This document shows positions 4,985 through 45,981 of a DNA stretch of 50,654 nucleotides, piece after piece. A program made the translations under genes and the position numbers. Where the stretch lies: positions 1-50,654 of the forward strand of contig JAFVPB010000017.1 in assembly GCA_017505525.1 (NCBI GenBank), in the 5' to 3' direction. Within the stretch, counting starts at the first letter, position 1; each line of letters opens with the position of its first letter. This DNA comes from Clostridia bacterium. GTDB taxonomy: Bacteria; Bacillota; Clostridia; UMGS1883. The notes beneath the pieces are model-generated. The model ran no database searches. It had not been told where the DNA came from and saw nothing but the letters and a program-made list of their open reading frames with translations.

Positions 4985-6811
<1,827 letters not shown>

Positions 6812-28957: not shown

Positions 28958-28966
28958 CTACGGTTC

Positions 28967-29088: not shown

Positions 29089-31545
29089 TCAGTTAGCGGG
29101 CATAACGGGGATAATACCGTCTGCTAAAAGGAATGATTTTACCTCTTCGCCATTTGTCCATGCAACGCTTGTAAGAGTTGCATTGTAAAGCTCGCCGCTT
29201 CCGATTGTAACTGCTTCGTTAGAAATAACGCTCTTTAATTTCTTTGCACCGTTAACGTTTTCGTAAACTGCTGTGTAAGCACGAACTGTTTTGCTTGCTT
29301 CTGCTTTATTAAACCAGTTTACTGTTGGAGTTACAGTGCCTTCGCCATAAGCATATGTGAATTCACAAGGTGCATTTACTGCTGCAAGAATTTCAATACG
29401 CTTACCAATAACGGTCTGTGCTGCCTGCTGGTCTGCAGGACCCCAGTTTGGAGTTGCTGTTGCTTCAACAACAATCTTGCCGAATGCTGCATCTGCAGGA
29501 ACTGTTACTAAACCAGCAGCGCTAACTGTTACACCTGCAGGTGCTTCAACAAGCCTATATGAAACAGTTGGCTGAGTAAGAATACCTTCTGTTGTACCAA
29601 ACTGGTTAACAACCAATGCATTTAACGCTGTCTCGCCTGCATTTGCAATGATTTCAGGAGCATTTATTTGAATATCTCCTGCTACCAGAACGCCTGCATA
29701 GAGGTCATCTACAAAGGCAGAGCTTGTAGCATCGGAGGTAACACGTGCGGTTAAGTTGGTAAGTGTTTCGCTTGGAGTTACGAAATTCTTCATTTCCCAA
29801 GCCTGTATTACATGAACATATGTCTGACCAAAATCCTGAGCTTTAACATAATTCTGTCCATCAACTACTGTCATTCGGTTACCACCCATATAGAAAGTTG
29901 GTATCTCATCACCGGTTTTACCATACTCACCTCTTGCCCAACCTGCTGTGAGAACGTACCACATTGCAGGAGCCTCAACATTCTGGCTATAAAACATATT
30001 AGCTTCTCCTAAGAACAAAGCATGTGTTGGGCTATGTGATCCAGTATCACGGACATATTGTTTACTGGAGTTAGCCAGCATCCATCCATCATGTCTACCT
30101 ATCTCAAAGTCAGGGTTTGTGAGCAGATTATCACCAATAACATTATAGTTTATGGTATATACTCTGTCTAAACAATCGTCTTGTTTAGCAGTAATCGTAA
30201 CTGTACCTGTTTTTGTTTCTGCATTATAAACAGGTGTGCCAACAACACATGTACCACCATCTGCAGAAGTTGCAGTTACTGAGGGAATGTATCTTTCTTC
30301 TGCATCAACCCAGTCACGGTAAGGAAGCGTGAGTGTGTATGTAGTCTCTGTTGGTTCAAAACCGGGAACAGAATATCCATCGAAAACAATTTCTGAAAGA
30401 CCTGCTCTAGGCATATTAGACTCATAATCAACGGCCATAGTAACACGGCTACCAATTATTGTCTGTGCTGCCTGCTGCTCTGCTGGGCCCCAGTTCGGAG
30501 TTGCTATTGCTTCAACAACAATGTTACCTACTGTGTCAAGAGAAGGATCGAATGACACTTTACCGGTTGAATCAATTGTTACGCCTGCAGGAGCTTCAAC
30601 AAGCCTATATGAAACAGTTGGCTGAGTAAGAATACCTTCTGTTGTGCCAAACTGGTTAACAACCTGTGCACTTAACTGAATGTCATTTGCAGCTGTGATT
30701 GTATCTGCCGGAACACCATTTATCTGAATATCACCTGCTACCAGAACGCCTGCATAGAGGTCATCTACAAAAAATGGAATTGCATCTATTGTATCGGGTA
30801 AAACACGTACAGTTAAGTTGGTAAGTGTTTCGCTGGGAGTTACGAAATTCTTCATTTCCCAAGCTTGTATTACATGAACATATGTCGAGTCAACATCCTG
30901 AGCTTTAACATAATTCTGTCCATCAACTACTGTCATTCGATTACCGCCCATATAGAAAGATGGAATTTCATCACCTGTTTTACCAGAGTTACCTCTTGCC
31001 CAACCTGCTGTAAGAACGTACCACATTGCAGGAGCCTCAACATTTTGAGCATAGTATAAACTACTGTCTCCTAAGAACAAGGCATGTGTTGGGCTGTGTG
31101 TTCCTGTTTCACGCACATATTGTTTACTGGAGTTAGCCAGCATCCATCCATCAGGTCTACCTATCTCAAAGTCAGGGTTTATAAGCAGGTTAGCACCAAC
31201 AACTGTGTAGTTAATGGTATAAACCTTAGATTCTGCACCTTCTTTGCTTACAGTAACTGTAACTGCGCTTTCAGTTGTTGCCACCTCGTATGTGCAGCCC
31301 TCTGCTGCCGTTGCTGTTACCACAGGGGTTTCTCCGCTTCTGCCCGCAAATGCATCGGGATCACGATACGGAAGTGTTGCTGTGTAGCTTGTTACATCCT
31401 TACTAAAGCCCTGCACAGTATATCCGTCGAACACAAGGTCGGTAAGATATACTTCGTCAGCAGCTGAAACTGTTGGAACCAGCACAACGCTGAAAATCAG
31501 GCTTACAGTAAGAATAACTGAAAGAATTTTGCTGATTTTTCTCAT
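29089..31545 (-). CDS. Exported protein with a tandem module duplication (cadherin-like, CBM-like, Ig-like)
   Basis: 818 aa. Signal peptide 1-28. Two near-identical blocks follow (about 30-375 and 380-705). Each has a cadherin-like beta-sandwich (LTDLVFDGYTVQGF or LSEIVFDGYSVPGF), a jelly-roll carbohydrate-binding-like part (NPDFEIG, SPTHALFLG, EAPAMWYVLTAGWARG, VDDLYAGVLVAGDIQI) and an Ig-like part (VVNQFGTTEGIL, SYRLVEAPAGV). A C-terminal domain (about 715-818) ends VKSFLLADGIIPVMPAN, a form seen at the ends of Clostridial glycan-active proteins. No enzyme domain and no SLH anchor are visible. Binding of polysaccharide outside the cell is inferred. It has its own regulon-type promoter. Confidence 0.8.
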   Translation of the reverse strand: MRKISKILSVILTVSLIFSVVLVPTVSAADEVYLTDLVFDGYTVQGFSKDVTSYTATLPYRDPDAFAGRSGETPVVTATAAEGCTYEVATTESAVTVTVSKEGAESKVYTINYTVVGANLLINPDFEIGRPDGWMLANSSKQYVRETGTHSPTHALFLGDSSLYYAQNVEAPAMWYVLTAGWARGNSGKTGDEIPSFYMGGNRMTVVDGQNYVKAQDVDSTYVHVIQAWEMKNFVTPSETLTNLTVRVLPDTIDAIPFFVDDLYAGVLVAGDIQINGVPADTITAANDIQLSAQVVNQFGTTEGILTQPTVSYRLVEAPAGVTIDSTGKVSFDPSLDTVGNIVVEAIATPNWGPAEQQAAQTIIGSRVTMAVDYESNMPRAGLSEIVFDGYSVPGFEPTETTYTLTLPYRDWVDAEERYIPSVTATSADGGTCVVGTPVYNAETKTGTVTITAKQDDCLDRVYTINYNVIGDNLLTNPDFEIGRHDGWMLANSSKQYVRDTGSHSPTHALFLGEANMFYSQNVEAPAMWYVLTAGWARGEYGKTGDEIPTFYMGGNRMTVVDGQNYVKAQDFGQTYVHVIQAWEMKNFVTPSETLTNLTARVTSDATSSAFVDDLYAGVLVAGDIQINAPEIIANAGETALNALVVNQFGTTEGILTQPTVSYRLVEAPAGVTVSAAGLVTVPADAAFGKIVVEATATPNWGPADQQAAQTVIGKRIEILAAVNAPCEFTYAYGEGTVTPTVNWFNKAEASKTVRAYTAVYENVNGAKKLKSVISNEAVTIGSGELYNATLTSVAWTNGEEVKSFLLADGIIPVMPAN

Positions 31546-31644
31546 TTTTTTACTCTCCTTTTTTAATATTTATATTTTTAAATTTATTAACCAAGGATAT
31601 GGGCATTGCTTCAGCAATCGTTATATTTCAATTGCTATCAATCC

Positions 31645-31697
31645 CACCTCATCCGAGTTGCTACGCAACCCACCTTCCCCTCGATGGGAAGGCTTTT
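31645..31697 (+). repeat. Family C repeat inside a 5' leader
   Basis: CACCTCATCC, hairpin GTTGC-tac-GCAAC, then CACCTTCCCCTC and GATGGGAAGGCTTTT. It lies between the predicted transcription start (about 31719) and the ATG (31545) of the 818-aa protein, so it would be part of that mRNA's leader. Confidence 0.65.
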
Positions 31698-31725
31698 ATG
31701 CGTATACATTTATCCTATTATATTA

Positions 31726-31789
31726 ATTATACAATTTTAAAAACTAAAATTATAGGTCAATATTTTGTTAAAGGACCAAAATTTTGCTG
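31726..31789 (-). promoter_or_regulatory. Regulon promoter of the 818-aa protein gene: 35-bp box plus TATAAT
   Basis: Box at 31755-31789; read on the minus strand, half-sites CAAAATTTTGG and CAAAATATTGA are 19 bp apart. A 23-bp gap leads to TATAAT at 31726-31731. 30 of 35 box positions match the solute-binding-protein box. No -35 hexamer is recognisable. A second TATAAT abuts the box (31749-31754), but only the distal one keeps the spacing shared by all three promoters. Confidence 0.75.
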
Positions 31790-31797
31790 CTATTTCA

Positions 31798-33213
31798 CTA
31801 TTCAACTGCCACTGCATTTTTAACGGTTCTGAGTATAACTTTATAATCAACAGGATTAAGACCTGCACAAGTATTGCTTATTACTCCTAATTCGTAAAGG
31901 GGCTCGTATGCAGATTTTATTCCTAAAATTTCGCCTGCCTCAGTTATCGGCATAAACAGTGAATTAAACTTATTAATTAACTCTTCTGCTTTATAAATCT
32001 TTTTGATTTCGCCGTCTTTTAAGATTGTTGCAGTTTTTGTTGCATTATCCCATGTAACGGTGCAGCCTGTTTTTTCAGCTGTGAAGCGAAGAGGGATATA
32101 AAGCTCGCCCGAGTGTTCAAACGGAGTAAACTTTTCGTTTTCGGGGTCAATCTCTACCTTTTCCCCATACACAGAAGCATACGGCGAGTTAGCTGCAAAA
32201 TAGATTCCGCCTGCAAGAATATTATCCATATGATTTACATAAATCACGTTACTCAGCGACTCTTCTCCCAAGGCGCCCGTTTCCTTAGTTCTTGGCTGAA
32301 CTCCGAAAAGAAGATAATAGCTGCTGTCATCTTCTGTTACTGTGTAGGTTTTTTCGTTGGCACCCTTAATTTCTTCAAGATACTCTTCTTTAAAGTTTTC
32401 AGGATACGGCTTGTTTCGTCCGTAACCAAAAGCATCAATCGGTGCAAGCGTTCTGTACCAATGATAAATGCTTTCGCCTTCTGTGCCACCATCTAAATCG
32501 TTGAAAATATACGAAGCAGTGAGAGTCTTACCTGTTATTCCCTTGCCATCAATTTTCGTTGACACCACAGAGGGAACATCGTTCTGCGCATTTCTTGTTG
32601 AGGGTAAAATTGTAATCGTGCTTGGGTTAAAGAAGCCAACGTGGCCCGCATCTCTTATCTGTGCCTCGTTATCGTCGATCACATTGATAAGCGTTTTTCC
32701 GTTAACCTTAAATATAAGCTGCACACCCTGTTCAATATTAATTGCCGCAAACTGAATGTTTACGCGCTCGCCTGCCTTAAATGGGTTTGGAACAACGGCA
32801 AGATAGCCCGATTTATAATTAAAGCGCTGCAGTTCAATCTGATGCTCTGTTATAACAACCAGGTAGTTTTTGTTTTCCTGCCAAAGCCACGGAAGCGCCG
32901 TTGGGCTTGATGAACGAAGCATAATTCCCTGCCACACTTCTGCACCAACAACGTTAAATATTGCATCGAACTCAATTGCTTCATTCAGATATTTTTCCTT
33001 TGTGTAGCCAAACACAGAGTTTACACCCTCGGGTGCAGTGTGTGTTAAAGCAGAATCCTTAAACACAACCTCCTCTTTGGGGGCATTCCAGTTTGTTTCA
33101 TCCTTTAAAGCCGCGTCGAGCTTCACGCTGCCTTCAGCTGCGCAGACAAACTGCGCAGCTGAAAGAGCAAGCACTATAGTTAGAATTAATGTTACTATGC
33201 GTCTTTTCAACAT
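31798..33213 (-). CDS. Exported protein with LamG-like, Ig-like and copper-amine-oxidase-N-like domains
   Basis: 471 aa from ATG 33213, preferred over 33219 because AAGGAG is 6 nt upstream (0 nt for the other). Signal peptide about 1-25. Residues 30-195 look like a concanavalin/LamG-type sandwich (QGIMLRSSSP, YLVVITEHQIELQRF). Then comes an Ig-like module (ITGKTLTASYIFNDLDGG, HWYR, TYTVTEDDSSYYLLF) shared with the 1314-aa neighbour. The C-terminal copper amine oxidase N-terminal-type domain (LYIPLRFTAEKTGCTVTWDNATKTATI near 370) is a cell-surface module, not an oxidase. It is the last gene of the five-gene surface operon. Confidence 0.8.
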   Translation of the reverse strand: MLKRRIVTLILTIVLALSAAQFVCAAEGSVKLDAALKDETNWNAPKEEVVFKDSALTHTAPEGVNSVFGYTKEKYLNEAIEFDAIFNVVGAEVWQGIMLRSSSPTALPWLWQENKNYLVVITEHQIELQRFNYKSGYLAVVPNPFKAGERVNIQFAAINIEQGVQLIFKVNGKTLINVIDDNEAQIRDAGHVGFFNPSTITILPSTRNAQNDVPSVVSTKIDGKGITGKTLTASYIFNDLDGGTEGESIYHWYRTLAPIDAFGYGRNKPYPENFKEEYLEEIKGANEKTYTVTEDDSSYYLLFGVQPRTKETGALGEESLSNVIYVNHMDNILAGGIYFAANSPYASVYGEKVEIDPENEKFTPFEHSGELYIPLRFTAEKTGCTVTWDNATKTATILKDGEIKKIYKAEELINKFNSLFMPITEAGEILGIKSAYEPLYELGVISNTCAGLNPVDYKVILRTVKNAVAVE

Positions 33214-33223
33214 ACTCATCTCC

Positions 33224-35872
33224 TTATCTGAATATGAAGATACCGTTTTTCCTGTAAAGTCCGCGGATGAACACTCTGTCGCCAGGTCTTATATCGGCTG
33301 CAGTGATAGGATAAACCTCGCCTGTTTTGGAATCAAACAAGCATCCGCCCTGTTCTTCAACGGCATATTCGTTTGTCTTATCAAAACGTTCTTCGCCAAC
33401 ACGCAGTTTAACCTGACGGCCCTTAACATCAACTGCAAGCACTGTTCCGAGCGCTTCGTTGTAGTCCTCAAGAGTTACTCTGTCGTTCGCGGGATTCATA
33501 GCTTTTTCTGCAGTTATAAACTGACCGATGCTATATGCGTATCCGTCTGCATCTGTCATATACGAAATAACATCACCAGGTTTAAGGTCGCTATGTGTAT
33601 CTTTGTATTCCGATGTGGTATAGATTTCCACCAGGTTAGCACCCGTTGTTTTATTCGAGCTGTAACCCACAATCTTATAAACCTCGTTATCGTTTTCGTC
33701 TTTTGCTACCCAAACTTCTGAAATCATTATATTAAGTGATGATTCATAGCTTGAAGATGAGCTTTCAGGTGCAGTGTAGATAATAAGATCTCCCCTGAAG
33801 AACTCGTCTGCATTATAAATAACAAAGTTTACCAATGCCTCTGCCGGAATCTGACTGCGGCGGTAACGAATATACTGATCCTCACGCTCAAGGTCGTTCG
33901 GCAGCTTGAATATTACCGCATTTTCAGCAATAGAATAAGTGGTTCCTTTAAGGTTTGTACCCTTTGTCCAGTCGGTTTTAGCCATCTGATTTACAGCGGG
34001 CCAAACGTGCGATTGTACAATTGCATCTTCATCACTTTTTTCTGCTCTTTCTTCAATTACCGTATCAATAAAGATAATCTCACCATCTTCATTTTGCTTA
34101 TAACGAATAGGTTTAAAACAGATACTGTCTTTTTCCGCAAGCAGAATATCATTTGCTTCCTGTGCAGTAAGATTTGTTTTTCCGTCAACAGTTAATTCTT
34201 TTGCAAATTCAAGAACTTCCCAGAATCCTGATTCAGCATACACCTTCATCTGGTATTGCGGATTAAGCTTTGTTCCAACGCCGCCAAACTGCTTTAATAT
34301 AGCGTATTTAGACACATCGCTTGTTGCCACAATATCTGCCACTGTATTAAGTGCACTGATTTTTACGCTGACATTCAAGCCTGTCTCAAGCTCTATATCA
34401 TTCTCTCCACATCTTATAAGTTCCAGGCAAGACTCTGAAACAACGTATTCCTTATTATCAATTCTCAGGATATTTTCTTCTACAATATCGTCAATGGTGC
34501 TTGTGAGAGATTTGCTTGATGCGCCGACATAGATGTAGCTGTTATCGGCACTCTTTAATATACTTACAGTATCACCCGAAGCAATTTCAGATGGCAAAGC
34601 ACTTTTTCCATCCTTTGTAATCACAACTGTCTTCTTTTCGTCTTCATCCTCGTCAAGATCAATATAGTTCTTTCCGTCAAAGATTGAATTATACTTAAAA
34701 TACAACCTTACAGAAGGCGTCTTTGATATGTAGTCAACAATATATGTTTCATACACATTGATAATAGCTACATCATATTTGCCGTTTCTTTCTGATGAAG
34801 CAAAGGTGATGGTTCCTTCTTTTTCAAGAAGATCGTTATCAATTGAATAGCTAATTACCGCTTCTCCGTTATAAACGTAGGTTTTAATTGCAGTTGGTGT
34901 AACCTTTTTATCTGTGTCTTTGCTACGATAGCAAATCTTTCCACCAACAAATTCCAATTCTCCAAGCGGTGCTGTGAAAGAGGTATCGCTTTCATCAACA
35001 CCGACAAACGCTACTTTTTTCGATGTTTCGTTTTCAAGCAATGCATAAACACGCTTTCCTAAAAAAGCTGATGTATCTTCCGCATTTGTGATAAATCTAT
35101 GGCCGTCAATAGCAATTTCATCTTTTTCAAGATAAGCATTGGAATAAATATCTATTCCGCCTGCTGCACTGCACAAGCCACTGATTTCTGTGAGCCCGAA
35201 AATCATATCAAGAAGGTTTTTCCCATCGGTAGGCTTATATTCAGTTCTTGCACCCGCACTATATACTTCCATTAAATCAATGCTGAGTGCATTATAAACA
35301 AGCTGAGAAAGTTCTCCGCGGGTAATATATTTAGCTGCGCGGTAATCAATCTTATTCAATAAATTCAAACGATAAGCCATATTAAGGATTGCAGTGTCGT
35401 TATCAAACGATAATGTATAGCCTAAAATATCCATCAGCTCTTTAACTGCCATAAGATGAGTTACATTTTCATCTTTGGAAGTATCTACACCATAATTTTC
35501 ACTTTCAACACCACTGCCGTAACGAAGTTTTGTCATTATTGTCATATATTCTTCATAGCTGACAATGCCTTCTTCGTTGTAAAGACCTTCGCTGTCAAAC
35601 GAAAGCAATCCAAGTGCCGCCATTATATTGTCGGCTTTTGCATATTTTAATGTTTCAGTTACTTTTTCTTCCTGTGGACTGTCTGTACCAGCATCGTCCA
35701 CTCTTGTCATGTATGGAATATCATATTTCCACACATCATCCATATAATCAAGGTTTTCGCGGATGGTTTTTTCTAAAAACTCCATATTATGAGCAGAAGC
35801 TATCGAACCAAATGGCACAATAAGTGCAAGAAGAATCGTAAGTACTCGATAAAGTGTATTATGTTTTCTCAT
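33224..35872 (-). CDS. Large exported protein with degenerate SLH-like N-terminal region
   Basis: 882 aa. Signal peptide about 1-27 (ILLALIVPFGSIASA). Residues 60-210 contain SLH-like repeats (NIMAALGLLSFDSEGLYNEE, GIVSYEEYMTIMTKL, AAKYITRGELSQLVYNAL) with only one clear TRGE motif. The remaining 670 residues are beta-rich, with repeated small strands and an end (GTVLAVDVKGRQVKLRVGEE, RPGDRVFIRG) resembling OB/SH3-like barrels. I do not recognise a catalytic domain. Its start is coupled to the 1314-aa gene (AAGGGGG in that gene's last codons). A structural surface-layer partner is the likely role. Confidence 0.7.
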   Translation of the reverse strand: MRKHNTLYRVLTILLALIVPFGSIASAHNMEFLEKTIRENLDYMDDVWKYDIPYMTRVDDAGTDSPQEEKVTETLKYAKADNIMAALGLLSFDSEGLYNEEGIVSYEEYMTIMTKLRYGSGVESENYGVDTSKDENVTHLMAVKELMDILGYTLSFDNDTAILNMAYRLNLLNKIDYRAAKYITRGELSQLVYNALSIDLMEVYSAGARTEYKPTDGKNLLDMIFGLTEISGLCSAAGGIDIYSNAYLEKDEIAIDGHRFITNAEDTSAFLGKRVYALLENETSKKVAFVGVDESDTSFTAPLGELEFVGGKICYRSKDTDKKVTPTAIKTYVYNGEAVISYSIDNDLLEKEGTITFASSERNGKYDVAIINVYETYIVDYISKTPSVRLYFKYNSIFDGKNYIDLDEDEDEKKTVVITKDGKSALPSEIASGDTVSILKSADNSYIYVGASSKSLTSTIDDIVEENILRIDNKEYVVSESCLELIRCGENDIELETGLNVSVKISALNTVADIVATSDVSKYAILKQFGGVGTKLNPQYQMKVYAESGFWEVLEFAKELTVDGKTNLTAQEANDILLAEKDSICFKPIRYKQNEDGEIIFIDTVIEERAEKSDEDAIVQSHVWPAVNQMAKTDWTKGTNLKGTTYSIAENAVIFKLPNDLEREDQYIRYRRSQIPAEALVNFVIYNADEFFRGDLIIYTAPESSSSSYESSLNIMISEVWVAKDENDNEVYKIVGYSSNKTTGANLVEIYTTSEYKDTHSDLKPGDVISYMTDADGYAYSIGQFITAEKAMNPANDRVTLEDYNEALGTVLAVDVKGRQVKLRVGEERFDKTNEYAVEEQGGCLFDSKTGEVYPITAADIRPGDRVFIRGLYRKNGIFIFR

Positions 35873-35874
35873 AC

Positions 35875-38800
35875 TTATTTATCCCCCTTTTCCGTTTCTG
35901 CAAAATTATGAAGTCGCATTACCATTGTAGCTGTCTGCGCTCTTGTAACATCACCAAGAGGAGCAAATTCTGTTGCGCTCATACCATTGAGAAGTTTAAT
36001 TCCCACTGCCTGCTGAACGTATCCGTATGCCCAGGATTGAATCTGATTGCTATCGGCAAATGCTAAATCCGCCGACTGAATCTGAGCTTCGGGATAAGCG
36101 GCTTTAACTGCGGCAATAAGAATTTTACAAATTTCTGCTCTTGAAACATTTCTGTTTGGATAGAAATTAGTATCTCGGCTGATAATTCCCTTATCAACTG
36201 CCGTCTGTAAATACTTGGCTACAGCATCTGCATCTGAAATATCTCCGAATATTTCTGTGTATTCGCTTTCTCCAAGTCCCAGAGTTTTCATCACGCAGAT
36301 TAAAAATTCTGCTCTGGTGATTTTCTCTTGTGGCATAAATTCGTTTTCTGAAACATTTTCCATTATGCCGTTGCTAAGCACAAACTGTATTCCATCGCGC
36401 ATCCACTCGGAATATTTTTCAAGATTATCTTTTCCTGCCTCAGGTTTAGTATCAATGTCGGGCACTACTATCGGTGTTGGAGATACTACTACGCGAGAAG
36501 GTGCTCCACCTCCGCCAGCTCCGCCTGCACCGCCACCGGAAGATTTTTTATATGTAGCACTTACTGTTTCACCCTCAAATGGCTTTAATGTAGCAACGGG
36601 TGTAACCTTAAGTGTTATTTCAGAGTTTCCGTAGGTTGAAGCATCAAGTGTAGTGCCTGTGCCAACACGTTTTCCTTTAACATACCATTCATAAATTGAT
36701 TCTCCCTGTGAAATATTGCAGGGGTGTGTATACTTGAAGCTTGCGCCAAGCAAATCTCCTGAAAGCTTCTTTATAGAAACTTTTGTTGCAACAGGCTTAG
36801 CCGCTGCATAAACAAGTGAAGATTCATGCTCTGTGCCATCTGTATAAGGTTCTTCATCAGATGCAGGAGCTACATACACGCGAATCTTTTTATCAACATC
36901 GTCTTCTGTTACCTTATATGTTTTCTCTGTTCCAATCGGAGTTTCTGTTTCTCCGTCCATACGAACCCAACGGTAAGTTGTATTTCCTTCGCCATCGCCG
37001 TTATCGTCAAAGAATGTGTAAGATGCAGTTAAAACTTCATCTACTGCAAATGTTCCTTTAATAGTAACATCTTTCGCTACAGGCGCTTTGGGATATACAA
37101 CGTAAGGACTTGAAACCGTTTTACCTACCTTGCCTTTTTCGGTTTTAGGTGTAACCTTTGCAATAATATGTTTATCCTCATATCCGCTTGCAATCGTATA
37201 GTATTTTCCTGTTGCCAGAGGCTCAATCGGTTTGTAGTCAGTAGCATCTACATTTTTATAGAACCACTGAATTTCAGTTCCTTCTTCAAGTTCTCCGTCA
37301 ACCTGAGCATAGTCGTACTTACATTCAAGTGTGCTTCCGAGTTCCACTCTTCCATCAATTCTTACGTTTTCTGCACGTGGATCAACGCTGTTATTTGGAA
37401 GAAGTGTAATTTCAACTGTTTTTGTTCTGCCTGCTAAAAGAACTTCGTCTTCCTGAGCATCTGCACCCATAAATGTGGGATTACATGTTGCAAGCACCTT
37501 TACTTTTGTATCGCTTGATGCCATATCAGTAACAATGAGCTTGTCGCCTTCGATATAAACGCCCTGCTTTTCTGCTTTAAGGCTCCATGTAATTGGCGCT
37601 TCGCCGTTTGTGAAGCCATCAAGCGTACCAAGCTGGTTGTATGCCGTTCCGATAAGTTCAACTTCTACGCTTCCTTTTGTAGGAATTGTTACTTCAGTTT
37701 CAGTTTTTGAGCAATCAATATCAGCTACCATAAGTTCACCAACATAGAAATCGTCCACATAATATGTGTTGCCCGCTGTCCAGCATGTAACCGTACTGAT
37801 AATTGATATATCTGTTGTGTTTTCATTTTTAACCATTCTTGTGAGGCGTCTCCACTCGGGAGTTGCACCCGATGCAAGTGCAGGATACTGTGTTTCATCT
37901 GTATCAACACTGGTACCGCCCGATGTATACATAATTAATCCTGCTGTGTTTCCTGCTGTGGGAATAGCCATAGCAGATATAAGATAAATTTTTTGTGGTT
38001 TTCCTGTGATAGACTGAAAATACAACTTCTGAATGTCTGTTCTTTCCTTAGGTGCTACAAAAGCAGAATAATCGCCTCTGTATGCAAATGAGGTTGTTGC
38101 TATAAGACCTGCCCATGTGCTTGTTGATTGTATCGTCCATGAACTTGGCGTATTTGATGCGTTAAAGTCTTCAAAGCTTGAATTCTTTATAAGGTTACTT
38201 CCATCTCTGCGAGCCTGGAGGATTTCTGCCATTGGAACTTTATGTTCTTCACTTACCCAGATGCTTTCAGATGGATACTCAGTATCATCATTAGGCTCTT
38301 CCTTGGAAACAGGGATTACCTTAACAAAAACATAATGGTCTGCTTCATCTTCTGTAAGCGTATATGTTTCCCCTGTGCCGATTTCAACCTCTTCCTCACG
38401 GTCGAGTCGGTACCATGTGATAACGGTACCGCCCTCTTTGGATACACCAAAGTCATTTCCGTCGATATATGTATATTTTGCTGTAAGGGTATCGCCAATA
38501 GCAAAATCATTTTCAAATGTGCCAATAATTTTAACGTCTTTCACAATTGGCGCCATGGGTTCCATTAATGCACCGCTTGTAAATGTTTCACCCGGCACAC
38601 CGCTTTGTGTTTTAGGTGTAATCTTAACTATAAAAGCACAACCCTCAGGGTAATCTTCGGGAATATCAAATTCCTTTTCATTAGCACCTTCAATCGGTGA
38701 ATAATCTGCCTCCTCGGGAGTTTTGCAGTACCACTGATATTCGGGTGTTCCCTCAGTTTTACCTTCTACCTGAGCATAAGTGTAATCACAACTGATTGTA

Positions 38801-39819
38801 GTTCCGGGAGTTGGCTCACCATCAAGAATAATATCCAGGGCTCTTGGAAGAGTGTAGTCGTTAGGTGTAAGAGTAATTTCGATTACTTCTTCTCTTCCTT
38901 TTAAATATAAATTCTTAAGGTCAGCATCTTCTTCTTCAAGCTGATAATCAAGTATTGAGGGATTGCAACTTGCAACTACCTTTACTGTAGTATCGCTTGA
39001 TGCTTTACTATCAATAATAAGATTATTTCCTTCAATTCTTACGCCCTGCTTTTCTTCTGCAAGGCTCCATACAACAGGAGCGACGTCGCCCTCCAGGCCT
39101 TCATTATCACCTGCCTGGTTATATGCTGTGCCGCTTAAAGCAATTTTAACTTCAGCTTCATTATCTTTCGGTATCACCGCACTTCTTACAATAGCCGAGC
39201 AATCAATTCCCGCTACCATAAGTTCGCTGAAATATATATCGTCAAGATAATATTCTGCACCATCTGAATAACAGAGAGCTATAGGTGCAGCCTTTTCACT
39301 GTCATTAAGTGCCTGAACAACCATATGGCCGTTTTTCCATTTTGGCTCTCCCTGTGCCGGTGGTGATACATGCTCATTATTTCTTGCATCTCCATAACCA
39401 GGGTCAATATCATCAAGCCCAGCTCCTGGATATAGAACAATATTATTGGTATTGCCCTCACCCCATGCCATCATCGTAGAAAGAAGATAATATCTTCCTT
39501 CTTTAATTGAAATAGTAGGATTTGGAGTAAAGAGTTGCCAGCTGCTTGTTAATTTTGACACTACCTTGGCAGCGCTTCCTCCGTTATACACAACATCTGT
39601 AGTATAAGATAAAACCCCTCCGTCGTTCCAGCCTGTAAGCACGCCGTCTGTAAGCTCAAAACCGGGGTTAGAATAAAAGTTTGTTTCCGCACGAAGTTCT
39701 TTCAAAAACTCAGACTCATAGTTATAATAAGTCTTCGGTGCTGCACAAACCACGCTTGGCACAAGTGCCAGATTAAAAAGCATTACTATAGAAAGTAATA
39801 AGCCTATCCATTTGCGCAT
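35875..39819 (-). CDS. Giant SLH-anchored modular surface protein
   Basis: 1314 aa. Signal peptide about 1-27. Two large repeats (about 45-560 and 560-1010) each hold a jelly-roll carbohydrate-binding-like part (NPGFELTDGVLTGW or NSSFEDFNASNTPSSW, ending LDDIYFSELMVAGI or VDDFYVGELMVADI), an Ig-like part (AYNQ-x-G, WSL-x-x-EKQGV) and further Ig-like modules (TYTLTEDE, TYKVTEDD). A Gly-rich linker near 1095 leads to three SLH motifs at 1136-1306 (ITRAEF, VSRAEI, VTRAQT), which anchor to pyruvylated cell-wall polymer. It likely displays glycan-binding modules on the cell. GGAGAAG precedes the start. Confidence 0.85.
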   Translation of the reverse strand: MRKWIGLLLSIVMLFNLALVPSVVCAAPKTYYNYESEFLKELRAETNFYSNPGFELTDGVLTGWNDGGVLSYTTDVVYNGGSAAKVVSKLTSSWQLFTPNPTISIKEGRYYLLSTMMAWGEGNTNNIVLYPGAGLDDIDPGYGDARNNEHVSPPAQGEPKWKNGHMVVQALNDSEKAAPIALCYSDGAEYYLDDIYFSELMVAGIDCSAIVRSAVIPKDNEAEVKIALSGTAYNQAGDNEGLEGDVAPVVWSLAEEKQGVRIEGNNLIIDSKASSDTTVKVVASCNPSILDYQLEEEDADLKNLYLKGREEVIEITLTPNDYTLPRALDIILDGEPTPGTTISCDYTYAQVEGKTEGTPEYQWYCKTPEEADYSPIEGANEKEFDIPEDYPEGCAFIVKITPKTQSGVPGETFTSGALMEPMAPIVKDVKIIGTFENDFAIGDTLTAKYTYIDGNDFGVSKEGGTVITWYRLDREEEVEIGTGETYTLTEDEADHYVFVKVIPVSKEEPNDDTEYPSESIWVSEEHKVPMAEILQARRDGSNLIKNSSFEDFNASNTPSSWTIQSTSTWAGLIATTSFAYRGDYSAFVAPKERTDIQKLYFQSITGKPQKIYLISAMAIPTAGNTAGLIMYTSGGTSVDTDETQYPALASGATPEWRRLTRMVKNENTTDISIISTVTCWTAGNTYYVDDFYVGELMVADIDCSKTETEVTIPTKGSVEVELIGTAYNQLGTLDGFTNGEAPITWSLKAEKQGVYIEGDKLIVTDMASSDTKVKVLATCNPTFMGADAQEDEVLLAGRTKTVEITLLPNNSVDPRAENVRIDGRVELGSTLECKYDYAQVDGELEEGTEIQWFYKNVDATDYKPIEPLATGKYYTIASGYEDKHIIAKVTPKTEKGKVGKTVSSPYVVYPKAPVAKDVTIKGTFAVDEVLTASYTFFDDNGDGEGNTTYRWVRMDGETETPIGTEKTYKVTEDDVDKKIRVYVAPASDEEPYTDGTEHESSLVYAAAKPVATKVSIKKLSGDLLGASFKYTHPCNISQGESIYEWYVKGKRVGTGTTLDASTYGNSEITLKVTPVATLKPFEGETVSATYKKSSGGGAGGAGGGGAPSRVVVSPTPIVVPDIDTKPEAGKDNLEKYSEWMRDGIQFVLSNGIMENVSENEFMPQEKITRAEFLICVMKTLGLGESEYTEIFGDISDADAVAKYLQTAVDKGIISRDTNFYPNRNVSRAEICKILIAAVKAAYPEAQIQSADLAFADSNQIQSWAYGYVQQAVGIKLLNGMSATEFAPLGDVTRAQTATMVMRLHNFAETEKGDK

Positions 39820-39862
39820 TTTTTCACTTCTCCTTTCAGTTTATCTAACGAGAAGATCTCTG

Positions 39863-39896
39863 TTTCCGTTGGCAACATTTTTGTTGCCAACGGAAA
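39863..39896 (-). promoter_or_regulatory. 15-bp hairpin between the beta-helix and SLH protein genes
   Basis: Perfect stem TTTCCGTTGGCAACA / TGTTGCCAACGGAAA with a 4-nt loop, 43 nt before the start of the SLH protein gene, inside the operon. No U-tract follows on the minus strand, so it probably protects or processes the mRNA rather than ending it. Confidence 0.55.
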
Positions 39897-39909
39897 TTTC
39901 AGTTTGATC

Positions 39910-42522
39910 TTAATAAATGTTTAGGTAGTTATAGAGATAATTGATGATTTCTTTATCGTTTTCAGGATTGAATAAATCTTCTGCATCACTGATTGCAATT
40001 AAACCACAGTTATCCCAGAATACGTGCTTGTCAAACAGATTAGAGATTTCTCTGAGAGGAACAAGCGTTCTTCCCTCTGAAACAACAGGTGCACTTTCAA
40101 GTGTAATTGCTTCACCGTTCTTTGAAGCAGCAGTCTGTCCAACTGTCATTTCAAGAGTTGCTTCAGCGCCTTTTATTTTAATTCCCTTTGTTGCTGCATC
40201 GTATGTTACCTCTGCACCAAGAGCTTCTGCTATAAAGCGGATCGGAACAAAAGTTTTATCTCCGATAAGCTTGGGAACAACCTTTATGTTTTCAGGATCT
40301 ATCTGCGTGTCTGCGTGCTTACTGCGTGCAAGCGGGCTGTTAAGGCAAAGCACAACTGCATCCTTTACTCTGTAGAGTGCGCGGTTATCATATCTTCCCA
40401 TACGAGAGAACGGAAGAGATATGAATTCGGGATTGGTTTTGAATATAACCGAATCCTCTTTTAAGAGGTAATTACGGTTTTTCATATCATAGAAACCGGG
40501 GTCCTTACTAAGCTTGATATTTCCTTTCTCCTCGAGAAGTGTTGCATGAGAAGTCTGGCCGAATTTATTATCCTGCGTATTGATATACACATTGTTAATC
40601 GATTTGTTGTTAACGGGAATCGAAATAACACTTTTATCAAGCGAAGGAATCATTTCGGGATAACGCTCGGTAAAGAGTGGTTTCTTCCACTGCTCTTCGG
40701 CTGGGTCTTTCCAATGAGGACTATTGAATACCGTACCTGCATATCTTGCATACGCCTTATCATAGTCGTGCACAAAGTCGGAATTGTAATTCAGGAAAAC
40801 GCCGCATTCCGAATTAATAACAATATTGTTATAGAAGGTGTTATCGTGGCCGCCATTTATCATAAATGCTTCGTTCTGCACGTTTTCAATTATGTTACCC
40901 ATAGCGGTAACACCGCACTGGCTACCATCGAGGTAGATAGCTCTCGAACCTGCTCCACCCTCGCTTGATGAATAAAGGTCGTGAATGTAGTTATAGCGAA
41001 GCTGCTGACCTCTCACCAAAAATGTCTGTCCTGTGTAGAGTGCACCCATATCGTCCGACTCTTTTAATACATCGTAAACTTCGTTATATTCAATAATGCT
41101 GTCAAATCCGCCGATCATAATGCCAGCGTGAGGTCCGTCGTGCACTTCATTATACGAAGCTCTGTTTTCAACACCGTTTGTCTCAATTCCACCGCGATAG
41201 GTTTTAGAAAGACGCGAATATCTGTTAAAATGACAGTTTTCAACATAACTGTAACCCGGTGTTAAATCGTTGATTATTCCCGAGAATACTCTAACGCCGC
41301 CGTCAACATCGTGAATATAGCAGTTTATAACTCCGCAATACTGGGTATTCGGCTGGAGTTCAATTGCATAGTCGGCTGTATATTTGATTTCAGCATCCAT
41401 AAAACGGATATGATGGCCTGATTCAACAATAACTGCACCGGCTCTCATAGTAGAAATATTAATTCCTTTAAAATCAATATACGAAGCACCCTTAACGGTA
41501 ATAGCATCTGCCTCAAGAAGTGAAAGAGTTACTTCTGATTTTGCACCAAAACTTTTTGGAGGATACATATAGAGCATAGCAGTATCATTATCGAGATAAT
41601 ACTCGCCGGGAGTATCAATTTCTTCAAGCAAGTTATACACATAGAAGCTCTGCCCCTCTATAACACCGTAAACACTACCCTGATGTCCCTCAAGGCTGTT
41701 TGCCACTGTATCGATGTTTGATATAAACACCGACTGGTCAGCCCAATCGTAACGCCAGTAACCATGTAAGATAGCATTTTTTGCATTCACCCATTTATCA
41801 ATACGCTTGTCGCCTGGTGTGATTATAAAGGGTTCAACATATTCTTCCTTGTCTTTTAAGTCGCCCGGATAACCCTGCCTTATAACTCTCTGTATTTTCA
41901 TACTGTCGCTATTGGGGTATCTTGCAACAGTTAAAAGCGTATCATCTACTACCAGTTCCGGTGGAAGATATGCTGGACGATTTGGCTTAACAGGTGTTCT
42001 GTAGCTATATGCACCGCGAAGGTAATAAGCACCAAACTCACTGAAGCCAAGCTCTTTAAGGTTAATCTGTAAAACCTTATCGCGAGCTGCCTCTTCAACA
42101 ATTCTTGATTTAATTGCCTCATCAGCAATCGGCACAAACTTATCAGCAGGAAGTGCCGCACCGCCAACTAAGGTTGCCTTTTCCCCGGGATAGTTACGAT
42201 ATACAATTGGTGCTTTTTCCGTTCCTGAATCTTCTGCAGTAAATGTAAGCCCTTCTTTAAGCTGATAATTTCCTCCGCGAAGATATACAACAAACCCCTC
42301 TGCAGGTGAAACGCCTGCAGCTTTTAATGCTCTGATTTTATCTCTTGCTGCATTTATGGTAGCAAACGGATTTTCCTCTGTACCATCGCCATTGTCGCTT
42401 CCTGTGGGAGATACATAAATATATTCCTTACCACTGTCCATCATGGCAAATGTCGTCATTTGCGGCATGCAAACAAGGAAAGTAGCTATAGCAACGATAA
42501 GTGCTCCTATTTTCTTAAACAT
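39910..42522 (-). CDS. Exported right-handed beta-helix protein with copper-amine-oxidase-N-like domain
   Basis: 870 aa. Signal peptide about 1-26. YVSPTGSDNGDGTEENPFATINAARDKI (about 35-62), GGNYQLKEGLTFTAEDSGTEKAPIVYRNYPGEKATLVGG and a long beta-helix (residues 330-600 with Asn/Gly-rich turns, e.g. NEVHDGPHAGIMIGGFDSIIEYNEV) match the pectate-lyase-like family that includes GH141 glycosidases; I cannot fix catalytic residues. Residues 735-845 are a copper amine oxidase N-type domain (FVPIRFIAEALGAEVTYDAA, RTLVPLREI) as in the 471-aa protein. It probably cuts a plant or host polysaccharide at the cell surface. Second gene of the surface operon. Confidence 0.8.
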   Translation of the reverse strand: MFKKIGALIVAIATFLVCMPQMTTFAMMDSGKEYIYVSPTGSDNGDGTEENPFATINAARDKIRALKAAGVSPAEGFVVYLRGGNYQLKEGLTFTAEDSGTEKAPIVYRNYPGEKATLVGGAALPADKFVPIADEAIKSRIVEEAARDKVLQINLKELGFSEFGAYYLRGAYSYRTPVKPNRPAYLPPELVVDDTLLTVARYPNSDSMKIQRVIRQGYPGDLKDKEEYVEPFIITPGDKRIDKWVNAKNAILHGYWRYDWADQSVFISNIDTVANSLEGHQGSVYGVIEGQSFYVYNLLEEIDTPGEYYLDNDTAMLYMYPPKSFGAKSEVTLSLLEADAITVKGASYIDFKGINISTMRAGAVIVESGHHIRFMDAEIKYTADYAIELQPNTQYCGVINCYIHDVDGGVRVFSGIINDLTPGYSYVENCHFNRYSRLSKTYRGGIETNGVENRASYNEVHDGPHAGIMIGGFDSIIEYNEVYDVLKESDDMGALYTGQTFLVRGQQLRYNYIHDLYSSSEGGAGSRAIYLDGSQCGVTAMGNIIENVQNEAFMINGGHDNTFYNNIVINSECGVFLNYNSDFVHDYDKAYARYAGTVFNSPHWKDPAEEQWKKPLFTERYPEMIPSLDKSVISIPVNNKSINNVYINTQDNKFGQTSHATLLEEKGNIKLSKDPGFYDMKNRNYLLKEDSVIFKTNPEFISLPFSRMGRYDNRALYRVKDAVVLCLNSPLARSKHADTQIDPENIKVVPKLIGDKTFVPIRFIAEALGAEVTYDAATKGIKIKGAEATLEMTVGQTAASKNGEAITLESAPVVSEGRTLVPLREISNLFDKHVFWDNCGLIAISDAEDLFNPENDKEIINYLYNYLNIY

Positions 42523-42547
42523 ATTATCTTCCTTTCTGTCTGTAGCC

Positions 42548-44098
42548 TTATTTTTTGGTCTTTATCCATTCATCAAGCTGCCTTTGTGCTTCTTTTACAA
42601 TCTTTTCACATCCGGCTGTTTTAAATTTCTTGTTTCTCTCTTCTATGAATTTCTTATAATCTTTGGTTGTGCCCCAGATTAAATACTCATACTCTTTTTC
42701 TATAGCACTGTACTGAGCAATTTCAAGGCTTACAGGCTTAGAATCGAAGCTGAATCCGATAAGAAGTGAAGGTTTAGCCTTGCCGTTTACTTCATTCTTT
42801 ATAAATTCGTCCCAGCCTTCGGTATCATACTGAGTCTGATATGCGTTAAAGGTGTTACCAAGCGCCCAGTCGTCATAACCGTAATTATTGTCTGAGCTTG
42901 TGCCGGGAGCACTACTCTCAAGCCACTCAATTTTATTATCATCAATCTTCTTATAGTGCTTGCCTTCAATACCGTATACAAGCATATTATAGAGCTTCTT
43001 GCCCTTTTCCGTATTTAAGAGTTCAATAAACTTTATTGCCTCTACAGGATGCTCTGCTGTTGAAGAAATAGCAAGGTTTGTTGTGGGAATTCCTGCACTT
43101 ACATAAAGCTGCTTTTCAAACGGGAATGCAAGAATCGGGAAACCGTGCTTACTGGTCAGACGTTCACCCTCTCCCTCGAAGCATGAGCCTTTCCAGAGAA
43201 CATAGCCGTTTTCTTGATTTTCATCTGCAGTACGGTCTGTAATAGACATAATATCTTTTCTGATATAACCTTTCTTGAACCAGTCTGCTGCCATATCATA
43301 GTATTCCGAGTTGTCGTAATCAAAGTTTATATCGTATACCTTATATGTATCTTCCCTCATATCTATCATTGCATTTGCAGCAATTGTGCCTGTGTGGCTA
43401 CGCACTCTGCCTATCATACGTGAAGCCGCAATAAGGAATGATGGAGCAACACCTTTGCGAAGCTCGCCTGCCTGTTTAAGCTTTTCAAGATATTCTTCAA
43501 AAGGTTTAAAGTCTTCTCTTGTTAAGAAGCCTTCTTTTTCTATCATATTTTTTGAGATTGCTTCCCAATCAAGGTCATACTTATCAGCAAGCTCCTTTTG
43601 TGTCATAAATCCGCCGGGAAGGTTTGTCATCATCTGATAGCAAGGTACGAAATAGGTTTTACCGTTATATTTTCCAAGGTTAAACACCCATTCGGGAAGT
43701 TCCTTTGTAAGGTCTGTAGTATGGTCTTTTATAAGATCATCAAGAGCCATTAAAGAACCCTTTTTAACTTCTTCCTGTAATGGAGCACAAGTAAAGCCCA
43801 TCCACACAACATCTACTGCTTCGCGTGATGCTGATATCAGCTTCCATTTTTCAGCGAATTCAGAATATGCAATACACTCGAATTCAACCGTTGTATTAGG
43901 CATATAATTCTTTAATTCTTTGTTGAATTCTTCCCAAACCATTTCAGAATCTTTCATCTCGCCTACTCCGCCAAATAAGAACTTAAGTTCTACCGGGCCA
44001 TCGGAGCTGCTTGTGGTTTTACCGCTGCAGCCTGCAAAAAGCGATGCTGCAAGGCAAATGGCTAACGCCAGCGCTAGTACTTTTCTGATTTTTTTCAT
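42548..44098 (-). CDS. Extracellular solute-binding lipoprotein of a carbohydrate ABC transporter
   Basis: 516 aa. Signal and lipobox LFAGCSG (Cys23), then the family 1 sugar-binding fold: ELKFLFGG near 38, VDVVWMGFTCAPLQEEVKKGSLMALDDLI near 92, VGIPTTNLAISSTAEHPVEAIKFIELLNTEKG-type C-terminal region near 330. It should bind an oligosaccharide at the membrane. No permease or ATPase gene is adjacent: the operon continues with exported surface proteins instead. AGGAGG precedes the start. It is divergent from the YesN/YesM pair and shares its box-type promoter, so the regulator very probably controls it. Confidence 0.88.
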   Translation of the reverse strand: MKKIRKVLALALAICLAASLFAGCSGKTTSSSDGPVELKFLFGGVGEMKDSEMVWEEFNKELKNYMPNTTVEFECIAYSEFAEKWKLISASREAVDVVWMGFTCAPLQEEVKKGSLMALDDLIKDHTTDLTKELPEWVFNLGKYNGKTYFVPCYQMMTNLPGGFMTQKELADKYDLDWEAISKNMIEKEGFLTREDFKPFEEYLEKLKQAGELRKGVAPSFLIAASRMIGRVRSHTGTIAANAMIDMREDTYKVYDINFDYDNSEYYDMAADWFKKGYIRKDIMSITDRTADENQENGYVLWKGSCFEGEGERLTSKHGFPILAFPFEKQLYVSAGIPTTNLAISSTAEHPVEAIKFIELLNTEKGKKLYNMLVYGIEGKHYKKIDDNKIEWLESSAPGTSSDNNYGYDDWALGNTFNAYQTQYDTEGWDEFIKNEVNGKAKPSLLIGFSFDSKPVSLEIAQYSAIEKEYEYLIWGTTKDYKKFIEERNKKFKTAGCEKIVKEAQRQLDEWIKTKK

Positions 44099-44118
44099 TG
44101 TTTTTTCCTCCTAGTTTT

Positions 44119-44140
44119 GGAAGCATTAAAAGCTGCTTCC
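44119..44140 (-). promoter_or_regulatory. Leader hairpin before the solute-binding protein gene
   Basis: GGAAGCA / TGCTTCC (44119-44125 and 44134-44140), just upstream of the ribosome binding site in a leader of about 94 nt. Confidence 0.4.
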
Positions 44141-44198
44141 ATAATTTTATTAAAATTTTAATTTAATACCACGCAAGTGGAGAGTATTCCACGCTTAA

Positions 44199-44262
44199 AT
44201 TATATCAACTTTTTCCACTCACAAAAAGGTTAAAATTTTGGTAAATGACCAATATTTTGCTG
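44199..44262 (-). promoter_or_regulatory. Regulon promoter of the surface operon: 35-bp box plus TATAAT
   Basis: Box at 44228-44262; minus-strand half-sites CAAAATATTGG and CAAAATTTTAA are 19 bp apart. Then a 23-bp gap and TATAAT at 44199-44204. The -35 position reads TTTTTG, far from consensus, so an activator touching this spot is expected. Confidence 0.8.
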
Positions 44263-44354
44263 TAACTACTTTTTACTCAACAGATATTTTTCTTTTTGAA
44301 TTTCCAGTGCAAATACCTGTCTTTCTGTGTGTTAAACACATTTTTTTACAAAAA

Positions 44355-44418
44355 GACCAAATTTTTGGTCATTTTGCAAAAATTAATCCTTTATTTTCCA
44401 TCAAAAATTAGATATAAT
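44355..44418 (+). promoter_or_regulatory. Regulon promoter of the response regulator operon: 35-bp box plus TATAAT
   Basis: Box at 44355-44389 with half-sites CAAATTTTTGG and CAAAAATTAAT 19 bp apart; 26 of 35 positions match the solute-binding-protein box. Again a 23-bp gap, then TATAAT at 44413-44418, with no -35. This implies autoactivation. The stretch 44263-44354 shows no gene. Confidence 0.75.
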
Positions 44419-44457: not shown

Positions 44458-45981
44458 ATGATAAACATTATTATTGTTGATGATGAGGAATTGAGTCTTA
44501 ATGCCATGGCTCGTTTTATAACTCATATCAGAAAAGATACAAATATATCAGGACTTTTCAAGAATGTGCATGATGCTATCGAATTCCTGAAAGATAATCC
44601 TGTGGATATTGTTATCAGCGACATCAGAATGCCTACTGCAAGCGGTATAGATCTGGCAAAATATATAAGAGAAAATTTTCCTTCTATCCGCGTTGTTTTT
44701 GCCTCGGCTTATTCTGACTTTGAATATGCTCAGCAAGCAATATCTTTGGGAGTTGTGCAATATCTTGTTAAACCCGTTGATGTTAATGAGCTTTCTTCGA
44801 TGCTTGAAAAGCTGATAACCGATATAAACAAAGAACGCGAAGGTCTTCTTAAGAAGCAAAAAGAGGAAGATAACTACAATAATCTTTTGCTTTGGGCAAA
44901 AACAGATATGTATGTCGACCTTTTAGCAGGACTTCTTTCAGACGACACAGAAATTTCAAAACGTGCTATGCATATTGGCCTTTCACAAGAGGCACAAAAG
45001 ACCTGCCATGCAGTAGTAATGGTAAGGTGCAAAGAAATGCTTCCTCCCGACTACAGTAAGGACGAATATTATCAGATGGTTTCTGATTTGTTCCGCGATT
45101 TTAAAGGAATCGACGATTTTATTGTTCTTTCAAAAAAGGAAAGCGACGTTACACTTGTTTTACGTTTTTCGCCTCATTTTGTTCTGGAAACTGCTAAGCT
45201 GCATTTAAAAAATGAATGCAGCAGAGTTCTCGGTGCAAGCAGTGGGAACTCTGCTTTAGAATTAGTTACTGAAACAGCATTTTTCTGCAGTTCACTTGTT
45301 GAACTTACGGGATATAAAGATGCAGTAAATAATTCTCTTTTGCTTCAGATGAAATTCCGCGACCTTGCCTCCTCCATATTTGCAGGAGAGCACACCAAAG
45401 TTAAAGATATATTCAACAGTATCCTTTGCTACGCCTACACGCTTAACCTTGAGCAATCGAAAAAGCTTATGCTCGAGTTGTTTACAAATCTCCAAAAGAA
45501 CTTTGAACTTTCAGATATGAATACCGAAATACTTTTTAATGAACAGTCAATTATGCACTGTAACGACATTAAAAAACTTTCTGAAACGGTTGAGCAGGTT
45601 TTAGAAAAAATCATCAGTTTCAGAAAGCTTTCTTCCGTAGGTCTTGAAGCTCTGACCATTGAGAAAGCAAAAGATTATATTAAGTCGCACTATATGTACG
45701 ACCTGACGCTTGAAGAAATAGCAGGACAGGTAAATTTAAGCAGTTTTTACTTCAGTAAGTTTTTCAAATCCGAAACGGGAGAAACACTTACTGAATACAT
45801 TACGTCAGTACGCATTAGCAAAGCCATTCAGATGTTTAAAGAAAGAAAATATAAACTGTATGAAATAAGTGAAAAGTGCGGATACAAAAGCCGCAAATAC
45901 TTCTCACATTCCTTCAAACAATTTACCGGCTACACTCCAAGTGAATATCAAAGGATTATAAATATAAACACGGAGGAATAA
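44458..45981 (+). CDS. YesN-type response regulator with AraC DNA-binding domain
   Basis: 507 aa. Receiver domain 1-120 with acidic pair Asp8/Asp9 (IIIVDDEE), phospho-acceptor Asp55 (VISDIRMP), Ser83 and Lys105 (YLVKPVD). A helical linker is followed by two helix-turn-helix motifs at about 405-500 (LTLEEIAGQVNLSSFYFSKFFKSETG and YKLYEISEKCGYKSRKYFSHSFKQFTGYTPSEYQ). I start it at 44458, 8 nt after AAGGAGG. The longer frame from 44296 would begin upstream of the promoter. It is coupled to the kinase gene 2 nt downstream. It is the likely binder of the 35-bp boxes. Confidence 0.95.
   Translation: MINIIIVDDEELSLNAMARFITHIRKDTNISGLFKNVHDAIEFLKDNPVDIVISDIRMPTASGIDLAKYIRENFPSIRVVFASAYSDFEYAQQAISLGVVQYLVKPVDVNELSSMLEKLITDINKEREGLLKKQKEEDNYNNLLLWAKTDMYVDLLAGLLSDDTEISKRAMHIGLSQEAQKTCHAVVMVRCKEMLPPDYSKDEYYQMVSDLFRDFKGIDDFIVLSKKESDVTLVLRFSPHFVLETAKLHLKNECSRVLGASSGNSALELVTETAFFCSSLVELTGYKDAVNNSLLLQMKFRDLASSIFAGEHTKVKDIFNSILCYAYTLNLEQSKKLMLELFTNLQKNFELSDMNTEILFNEQSIMHCNDIKKLSETVEQVLEKIISFRKLSSVGLEALTIEKAKDYIKSHYMYDLTLEEIAGQVNLSSFYFSKFFKSETGETLTEYITSVRISKAIQMFKERKYKLYEISEKCGYKSRKYFSHSFKQFTGYTPSEYQRIININTEE

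What the first reader, a model, noticed from the sequence alone, without database searches (positions are those of the whole stretch)
31726..44418. Three promoters share a 35-bp two-half-site box placed exactly 23 bp before TATAAT
Seen: boxes at 44228-44262 (minus), 31755-31789 (minus) and 44355-44389 (plus). Half-sites of the form CAAAWTWTTGG sit 19 bp apart in each. In all three the gap to a perfect TATAAT is exactly 23 bp and no -35 hexamer is recognisable. The solute-binding-protein and 818-aa boxes agree at 30 of 35 positions; the response regulator box agrees with the former at 26 of 35. Known: AraC-type activators bind paired half-sites next to weak -35 regions. Inference: the YesN-type regulator at 44458 activates its own operon, the surface operon and the distant 818-aa gene, a local regulon of about 20 kb.
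Basis: partly seen in the sequence, partly recalled or inferred. Interest (0 to 1): 0.86.

Follow-up and report, generated by a model that had tools for sequence, protein, structure and literature searches.

The report
Private operator of a sugar-sensing regulator
Three gene groups around a two-component (sensor plus regulator) system carry the same 35-bp regulator-type site exactly 23 bp before the promoter's TATAAT, and a decaying twin of the system elsewhere in the genome keeps the same sites, so this looks like a real, small, dedicated regulon of a known general kind.

Summary
They are the three best pairs among 94 TATAAT-linked segments in the window; 300 shuffles gave no pair above 24. 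Conservation is confined to the box (SBP vs 818: box 30/35, upstream 11/35, spacer 6/23). In the 2.4-Mb genome the box recurs only on contig C60, a decayed twin cluster: remnants of the regulator gene and of the 818-aa gene each sit behind a box with a 23-bp gap, and a divergent box has a 24-bp gap. Half-sites are direct repeats 19 bp apart, abutting a poor -35. Most likely they are operators of the adjacent YesN-type response regulator (REC + AraC-type HTH), activating its own operon, the SBP/surface operon and the 818-aa gene. Binding and activation are inferred. Tandem AraC-type two-component sites are a known kind; this is a new, lineage-private member.

The parts
44355..44389 (+). Box of the response-regulator promoter: half-site 1 44358-44370 (palindrome GACCAAATTTTTGGTC at 44355-44370), half-site 2 44377-44389
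   Evidence: the 16-bp palindrome occurs only here and in C60 in the genome
44413..44418 (+). -10 TATAAT of the RR promoter, 23 bp after the box
44336..44370 (-). Fourth, reverse-facing box-like site sharing half-site 1 of the RR box; no good -10 at 23 bp; its C60 counterpart has TATAAT
44228..44262 (-). Box of the SBP/surface-operon promoter: half-site 1 44247-44259, half-site 2 44228-44240
44199..44204 (-). -10 TATAAT of the SBP promoter
31755..31789 (-). Box of the 818-aa gene promoter: half-site 1 31774-31786, half-site 2 31755-31767
31726..31731 (-). -10 TATAAT of the 818-aa gene promoter
44458..45981 (+). YesN-type response regulator, 507 aa: receiver domain plus AraC-type HTH; proposed activator
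   Evidence: Pfam PF00072 E 2.5e-25, PF00165 1.7e-20, PF12833 1.4e-18
45984..47759 (+). YesM-type sensor histidine kinase (His_kinase + HATPase_c; dCache_1 below the curated cut-off)
47775..50516 (+). 913-aa protein without an N-terminal signal, distantly GH20-like; third gene of the RR operon, remnants in C60
   Evidence: profile vs PDB 9fyn GH20 E 0.0027
42548..44098 (-). Extracellular solute-binding protein (SBP_bac_1 + DUF3502), first gene of the surface operon
   Evidence: PDB 5swa E 1e-20
31798..42522 (-). Rest of the surface operon: 870-aa beta-helix/Cu_amine_oxidN1 protein, 1314-aa AIR9/SLH protein, 882-aa protein, 473-aa Cu_amine_oxidN1 protein
29089..31545 (-). 818-aa protein with an N-terminal signal-like stretch and two homologous halves; third target
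   Evidence: C60 homologue behind a box

Best explanation
The 35-bp box is the operator of the adjacent two-component system. A membrane histidine kinase (45984-47759) would phosphorylate the YesN-type response regulator (44458-45981). Its AraC-type HTH domains would bind two direct-repeat half-sites (consensus CAAAAWWTTGRYC, 19 bp apart) whose downstream end abuts the -35 position, recruiting RNA polymerase to promoters with a perfect or near-perfect -10 but almost no -35 (class II-type activation). Targets are its own operon (RR-HK-GH20-like protein), the divergent SBP/surface-protein operon and the 818-aa gene. The same regulator could still recognise the three boxes of the decayed twin on contig C60. 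Shown: sequence, positions, spacing, genome-wide exclusivity, conservation in the twin. Inferred: binding, phosphorylation, activation, ligand.
For: Exact boxes and spacing; significance. Genome-wide pattern search finds only the window boxes, the C60 boxes and one weak AT-rich hit, with 0 control hits; 0 hits in the other 27 genomes of the order at <=2 mismatches. With the -10 included, only these plus the reverse site and one 3-mismatch hit on C19. C60 carries a regulator remnant (82% over 48 aa), pieces of the 913-aa gene (65-70%) and an 818 homologue (42%), with boxes before the regulator (gap 23, TATACT), before the 818 homologue (gap 23, TACACT) and a divergent one (gap 24, TATAAT). Cross-validated matrix. 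Conservation confined to the box. Direct repeat of 19 bp, p=0.003 against column permutation. Regulator domains. In Caldicellulosiruptor, AraC-type regulators including three of five two-component ones have tandem-repeat sites upstream of promoter elements and are inferred activators (PMC8579813). Clostridium cellulolyticum XydR, an AraC-type response regulator, binds upstream of its targets (PMC3572039).
Against: No binding or expression data. No orthologous regulator was found in GTDB species genomes or the held relatives, so there is no independent cross-species footprint; the twin is one duplication. The box also has partial inverted symmetry (p=0.048) and its first half-site is a 16-bp palindrome in the RR promoters, so another kind of dimer cannot be excluded. 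XydR did not bind upstream of its own two-component genes (PMC3572039), so autoregulation is not a rule of the family.
Confidence: 0.82

Rival explanations
1. The box is the site of another transcription factor, such as one of the cupin-AraC regulators (window 26573-27316, 17551-18453; C60 849-1661) or a dimeric repressor of the palindrome GACCAAAWWTTTGGTC; the response regulator is only one of its targets.
For: The first half-site is palindromic in the RR promoters; the box has some inverted symmetry (p 0.048); AraC-type genes lie in the same window and on C60.
Against: The palindrome is imperfect in the SBP and 818 boxes, while the second half-site and the position relative to -10 are kept. 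The AraC-type proteins of window and C60 are only about 22% identical, whereas the response regulator is the one regulator present (as a remnant in C60) at both box-bearing loci. A site abutting a missing -35 fits activation better than repression.
Confidence: 0.12
2. The boxes are similar only because promoter DNA was copied between the three genes, or because AT-rich promoter DNA resembles itself; no regulator is involved.
For: The genome is AT-rich (window GC 0.39) and the boxes lie in AT-rich intergenic DNA.
Against: Flanks and spacer are unrelated (SBP vs 818: upstream 11/35, spacer 6/23, downstream 8/35, box 30/35). Shuffles do not reach it. The twin keeps the box while spacer and downstream DNA diverge (RR: box 32/35, spacer 13/23, downstream 8/35).
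Confidence: 0.03
3. The boxes have an RNA or termination role (hairpin GACCAAAAATTTGGTC followed by T at 44370-44355 on the minus strand).
For: The scan lists it as terminator-like.
Against: Terminator-like sites in the region are not in excess (16 vs 12.7, sd 3.8). The full hairpin is absent from the SBP and 818 boxes, and all boxes lie upstream of a -10, so they would not be transcribed from their own promoters.
Confidence: 0.02

Closest known systems
AraC-type two-component regulators of Caldicellulosiruptor (AviRS, MosSQ, AxeRS, GxgRS; PMC8579813)
   Same: Local sensor/regulator pair with an AraC-type DNA-binding domain; tandem-repeat sites upstream of promoter elements; inferred activation of neighbouring sugar-uptake and degradation genes.
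   Different: That study searched repeats with 21- or 32-bp periodicity; here it is 19 bp. Here the targets are a solute-binding protein and surface proteins without permeases in the cluster, and a remote secreted protein.
XydS/XydR of Clostridium cellulolyticum (PMC3572039)
   Same: REC + AraC-type response regulator of similar size (532 vs 507 aa) controlling a nearby multigene cluster and a remote gene; common repeats upstream of and on the predicted -35.
   Different: XydR targets have a clear predicted -35 consensus; XydR did not bind upstream of xydS or xydR, while here the regulator promoter carries the box.
YesN and RR07 of Streptococcus pneumoniae (PMC11034029)
   Same: YesN-type regulators of two-component systems; RR07 linked to host glycan use.
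   Different: No clear repeat motif was found for YesN there; the RR07 candidate motif CTWWWWWWAG is unrelated.
AraC araI1-I2 class II activation (Escherichia coli; from general knowledge)
   Same: Two direct-repeat half-sites, the downstream one at the -35 of a promoter with a poor -35.
   Different: 21-bp spacing and a sugar-binding instead of a receiver domain.

Membership tests
YesMN-type two-component system | Response regulator with N-terminal receiver and C-terminal AraC-type HTH | tested here: met
   PF00072, PF00165, PF12833 above curated cut-offs
YesMN-type two-component system | Adjacent sensor kinase with His_kinase (PF06580) and HATPase domains | tested here: met
AraC/XylS-family activator regulon (class II-type sites) | Paired direct-repeat half-sites upstream of target promoters | tested here: met
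   19-bp direct repeat across six boxes, column-permutation p 0.0028
AraC/XylS-family activator regulon (class II-type sites) | Half-site adjacent to or overlapping a poor -35 | tested here: met
   23-bp gap = 6 + 17; hexamers match TTGACA at 2-3 of 6
AraC/XylS-family activator regulon (class II-type sites) | Repeat period near two helical turns (21 bp in the Caldicellulosiruptor searches) | tested here: inconclusive
   Period is 19 bp; shift 21 scores 0.41 against 0.59 for 19
AraC/XylS-family activator regulon (class II-type sites) | Direct binding by the regulator and activation | not testable with these tools
   needs gel shift, footprint or deletion mutant
Local regulon of the adjacent regulator | Sites confined to genes linked to the regulator or its paralogue, not at random intragenic places | tested here: met
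Local regulon of the adjacent regulator | Conservation of site and regulator together in other species | tested here: inconclusive
   No orthologue in the genomes searched; only the intragenomic twin C60

The most novel reading that the evidence does not exclude
The palindromic first half-site in the regulator promoter (window 44355-44370; C60 5294-5309) is a shared element of a bidirectional activator site: three half-sites in the order half2'-half1-half2 serve two divergent promoters, and the orphaned boxes of the decayed twin are still driven by the surviving regulator. In the window the surface operon has its own separate box.
Probability: 0.3. Interest if true: 0.45.

Novelty: new member of a known kind. 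Interest (0 to 1): 0.34.

Why it matters
It gives a concrete predicted operator, half-site consensus and promoter geometry for a YesN-type response regulator, a large class for which few operators are described and whose motif was not found in a recent pneumococcal survey. It links a sensor to a surface operon and a remote secreted protein, and the decayed twin offers a natural test of which bases of the operator are kept. It does not change general ideas about such regulators.

Tried and rejected
The same architecture in the paralogous clusters of this genome (C9, C14, C44, C56, C23, C25, C21, C62) and in two relatives (G004, G019): apart from repeated coding sequence in C25, C62 and G004, no promoter pair at a 23-bp gap comparable to the box; the C14 SBP promoter is an ordinary TTGACC-18-TATAAT. 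A 19-bp direct repeat TTTTCCCAWTA beside the 40%-identical C9 regulator looked promising but is not significant (30 of 500 shuffles for period 19, 145 of 500 for periods 17-23). Within the window's intergenic region alone the repeat period is not significant either; its support comes from all six boxes together. Cross-species footprinting by RR orthologues in GTDB genomes gave only partial matches to the receiver domain or the HTH. The C55:2764 and C19:18330 hits at 3 mismatches have no good -10 at the right place and were set aside. Profile searches give the 913-aa protein no named family, only a weak GH20 match. No structure prediction was run: the finding concerns promoter DNA, and a single-sequence model of the 913-aa protein would probably be poor.

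Full report
What was checked. The three boxes were re-read from the sequence. They lie at the stated coordinates and strands, agree at 30 (SBP/818), 26 (SBP/RR) and 24 (818/RR) of 35 positions, and each is followed after exactly 23 bp by TATAAT. The window has 94 TATAAT on both strands; comparing the 35-mers at that offset over all pairs puts the three box pairs at ranks 1 to 3, the next at 23. In 300 dinucleotide-preserving shuffles of the window the best pair never exceeded 24. With a 17-bp spacer the -35 hexamers would be TTTTTG, TATAAT and TTTATT, so the box abuts the -35 position of promoters that almost lack a -35.

Box versus flanks. Between the SBP and 818 promoters, identity is 11/35 upstream, 30/35 in the box, 6/23 in the spacer and 8/35 downstream of the -10. 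The box is therefore conserved on its own and is not a copied promoter fragment.

Genome-wide. The window is contig C36 of a 2.4-Mb, 71-contig genome. A degenerate pattern with up to 3 mismatches finds the three window boxes, three sites on contig C60 and one weak hit on C55; the reversed control pattern finds none. At up to 2 mismatches no other genome of the order (27 others) has a hit. The core palindrome GACCAAAWWTTTGGTC, with up to 1 mismatch, occurs at only two places in the genome: the RR promoter of the window and its C60 counterpart.

The twin. Contig C60 (L023) carries a decayed copy of the system: the first 48 residues of the regulator (82%), pieces of the 913-aa gene (65-70%), and the start of an 818-type gene (42%; 64% over the signal-peptide region). 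The remnant order fits internal deletions that removed most of the regulator, the kinase and the SBP gene. The boxes remain: before the regulator remnant, box 5275-5309(-), gap 23, TATACT; facing the other way, box 5294-5328(+), gap 24, TATAAT; before the 818 homologue, box 6527-6561(+), gap 23, TACACT. The pairing of box with regulator gene and with 818-type gene is thus repeated. The RR boxes agree at 32/35 while the spacer agrees at 13/23 and the downstream DNA at 8/35.

Cross-validation. A weight matrix trained only on the three C60 boxes ranks, in the whole window and on both strands, 44355(+) 34.7, 44336(-) 33.2, 31755(-) 28.3 and 44228(-) 25.5 bits; the next site scores 12.1. A matrix trained only on the window boxes ranks the C60 boxes first among all other sites in 236 kb of this genome. 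It shares the palindromic half-site with the RR box and faces the other way, like the divergent C60 box; a good -10 is missing in the window, where the SBP operon instead has its own box about 73 bp further left (44228-44262).

Half-site architecture. Across six boxes the self-match is highest for a direct repeat of 19 bp (0.594; other shifts from 14 to 23 at most about 0.41), p = 0.003 against permuted columns; the best inverted symmetry is weaker (0.529, p = 0.048). The half-site consensus is CAAAAWWTTGRYC. Columns invariant in all six boxes are C4 A5 A6 A7, T9, T11 T12 G13 G14 T15 C16, T18, T20, A24-A27 and C35.

Who binds. The operon behind the RR box encodes a response regulator with receiver and AraC-type HTH, a His_kinase/HATPase sensor kinase with a possible Cache sensor, and a 913-aa protein that is distantly GH20-like. 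The divergent operon encodes an SBP (SBP_bac_1/DUF3502) and large surface proteins (beta-helix, SLH/AIR9, Cu_amine_oxidN1 domains). The response regulator is the one regulator represented at both box-bearing loci. Paralogous SBP/surface clusters with other regulators in the same genome lack the box. Activation by the regulator is the best reading; no binding data exist.

Comparison with the literature. In Caldicellulosiruptor, AraC-type regulators including three of five two-component ones have tandem-repeat sites upstream of promoter elements and are inferred activators; repeats were sought there at 21 or 32 bp (PMC8579813). XydR of Clostridium cellulolyticum controls a cluster and a remote gene, with shared repeats upstream of and on the predicted -35, but did not bind its own two-component promoters (PMC3572039). 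A pneumococcal survey found no clear repeat motif for YesN (PMC11034029). The present system is a member of this known kind, with a 19-bp period, a probable autoregulatory site and a shared palindromic half-site as particulars.

Limits. No orthologue of the regulator was found in other species, so conservation rests on one intragenomic twin. Operon extents are inferred from spacing and strand.

Noticed in passing
window 31590-31705: The leader of the 818-aa gene contains an interspersed repeat: a 116-bp query has 11 matches in the genome including itself (most 53-70 bp at 80-94%), another at window 28966-29016; it is absent from the C60 leader.
   Followed up: partly
L023 (contig C60) 4469-7241: Decayed twin of the window system with boxes intact and genes broken; a transposase-like ORF (by eye) lies at L023 272-784.
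   Followed up: yes
window 39910-42522 and G000 C9, C14, C21, C25, C44, C62: The 870-aa beta-helix/Cu_amine_oxidN1 protein has 10 further full or large partial paralogues in this genome (33-46% identity), often beside 1314-, 882- or 473-type surface proteins and SBPs: an expanded surface system, without permeases in the window cluster.
   Followed up: partly
window 47775-50516; C25:1578-3686, C21, C23, C13: A protein family with no Pfam or NCBIfam match (six members aligned, 22-23% to the window protein), with a weak profile match to a GH20 lacto-N-biosidase structure (E 0.0027); possibly a new cytoplasmic glycosidase family.
   Followed up: partly
window 29089-31545: The 818-aa secreted protein consists of two very similar tandem halves of about 350 aa.
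   Followed up: no
window 39862-39897: A 16-pair stem-loop (GTTTCCGTTGGCAACA...) lies between the 870-aa and 1314-aa genes of the surface operon and could stabilise or attenuate the transcript.
   Followed up: no
window 44329-44339: A small near-palindrome GTGTTAAACAC lies at the left end of the reverse box, in the stretch that corresponds to the divergent promoter of C60.
   Followed up: no
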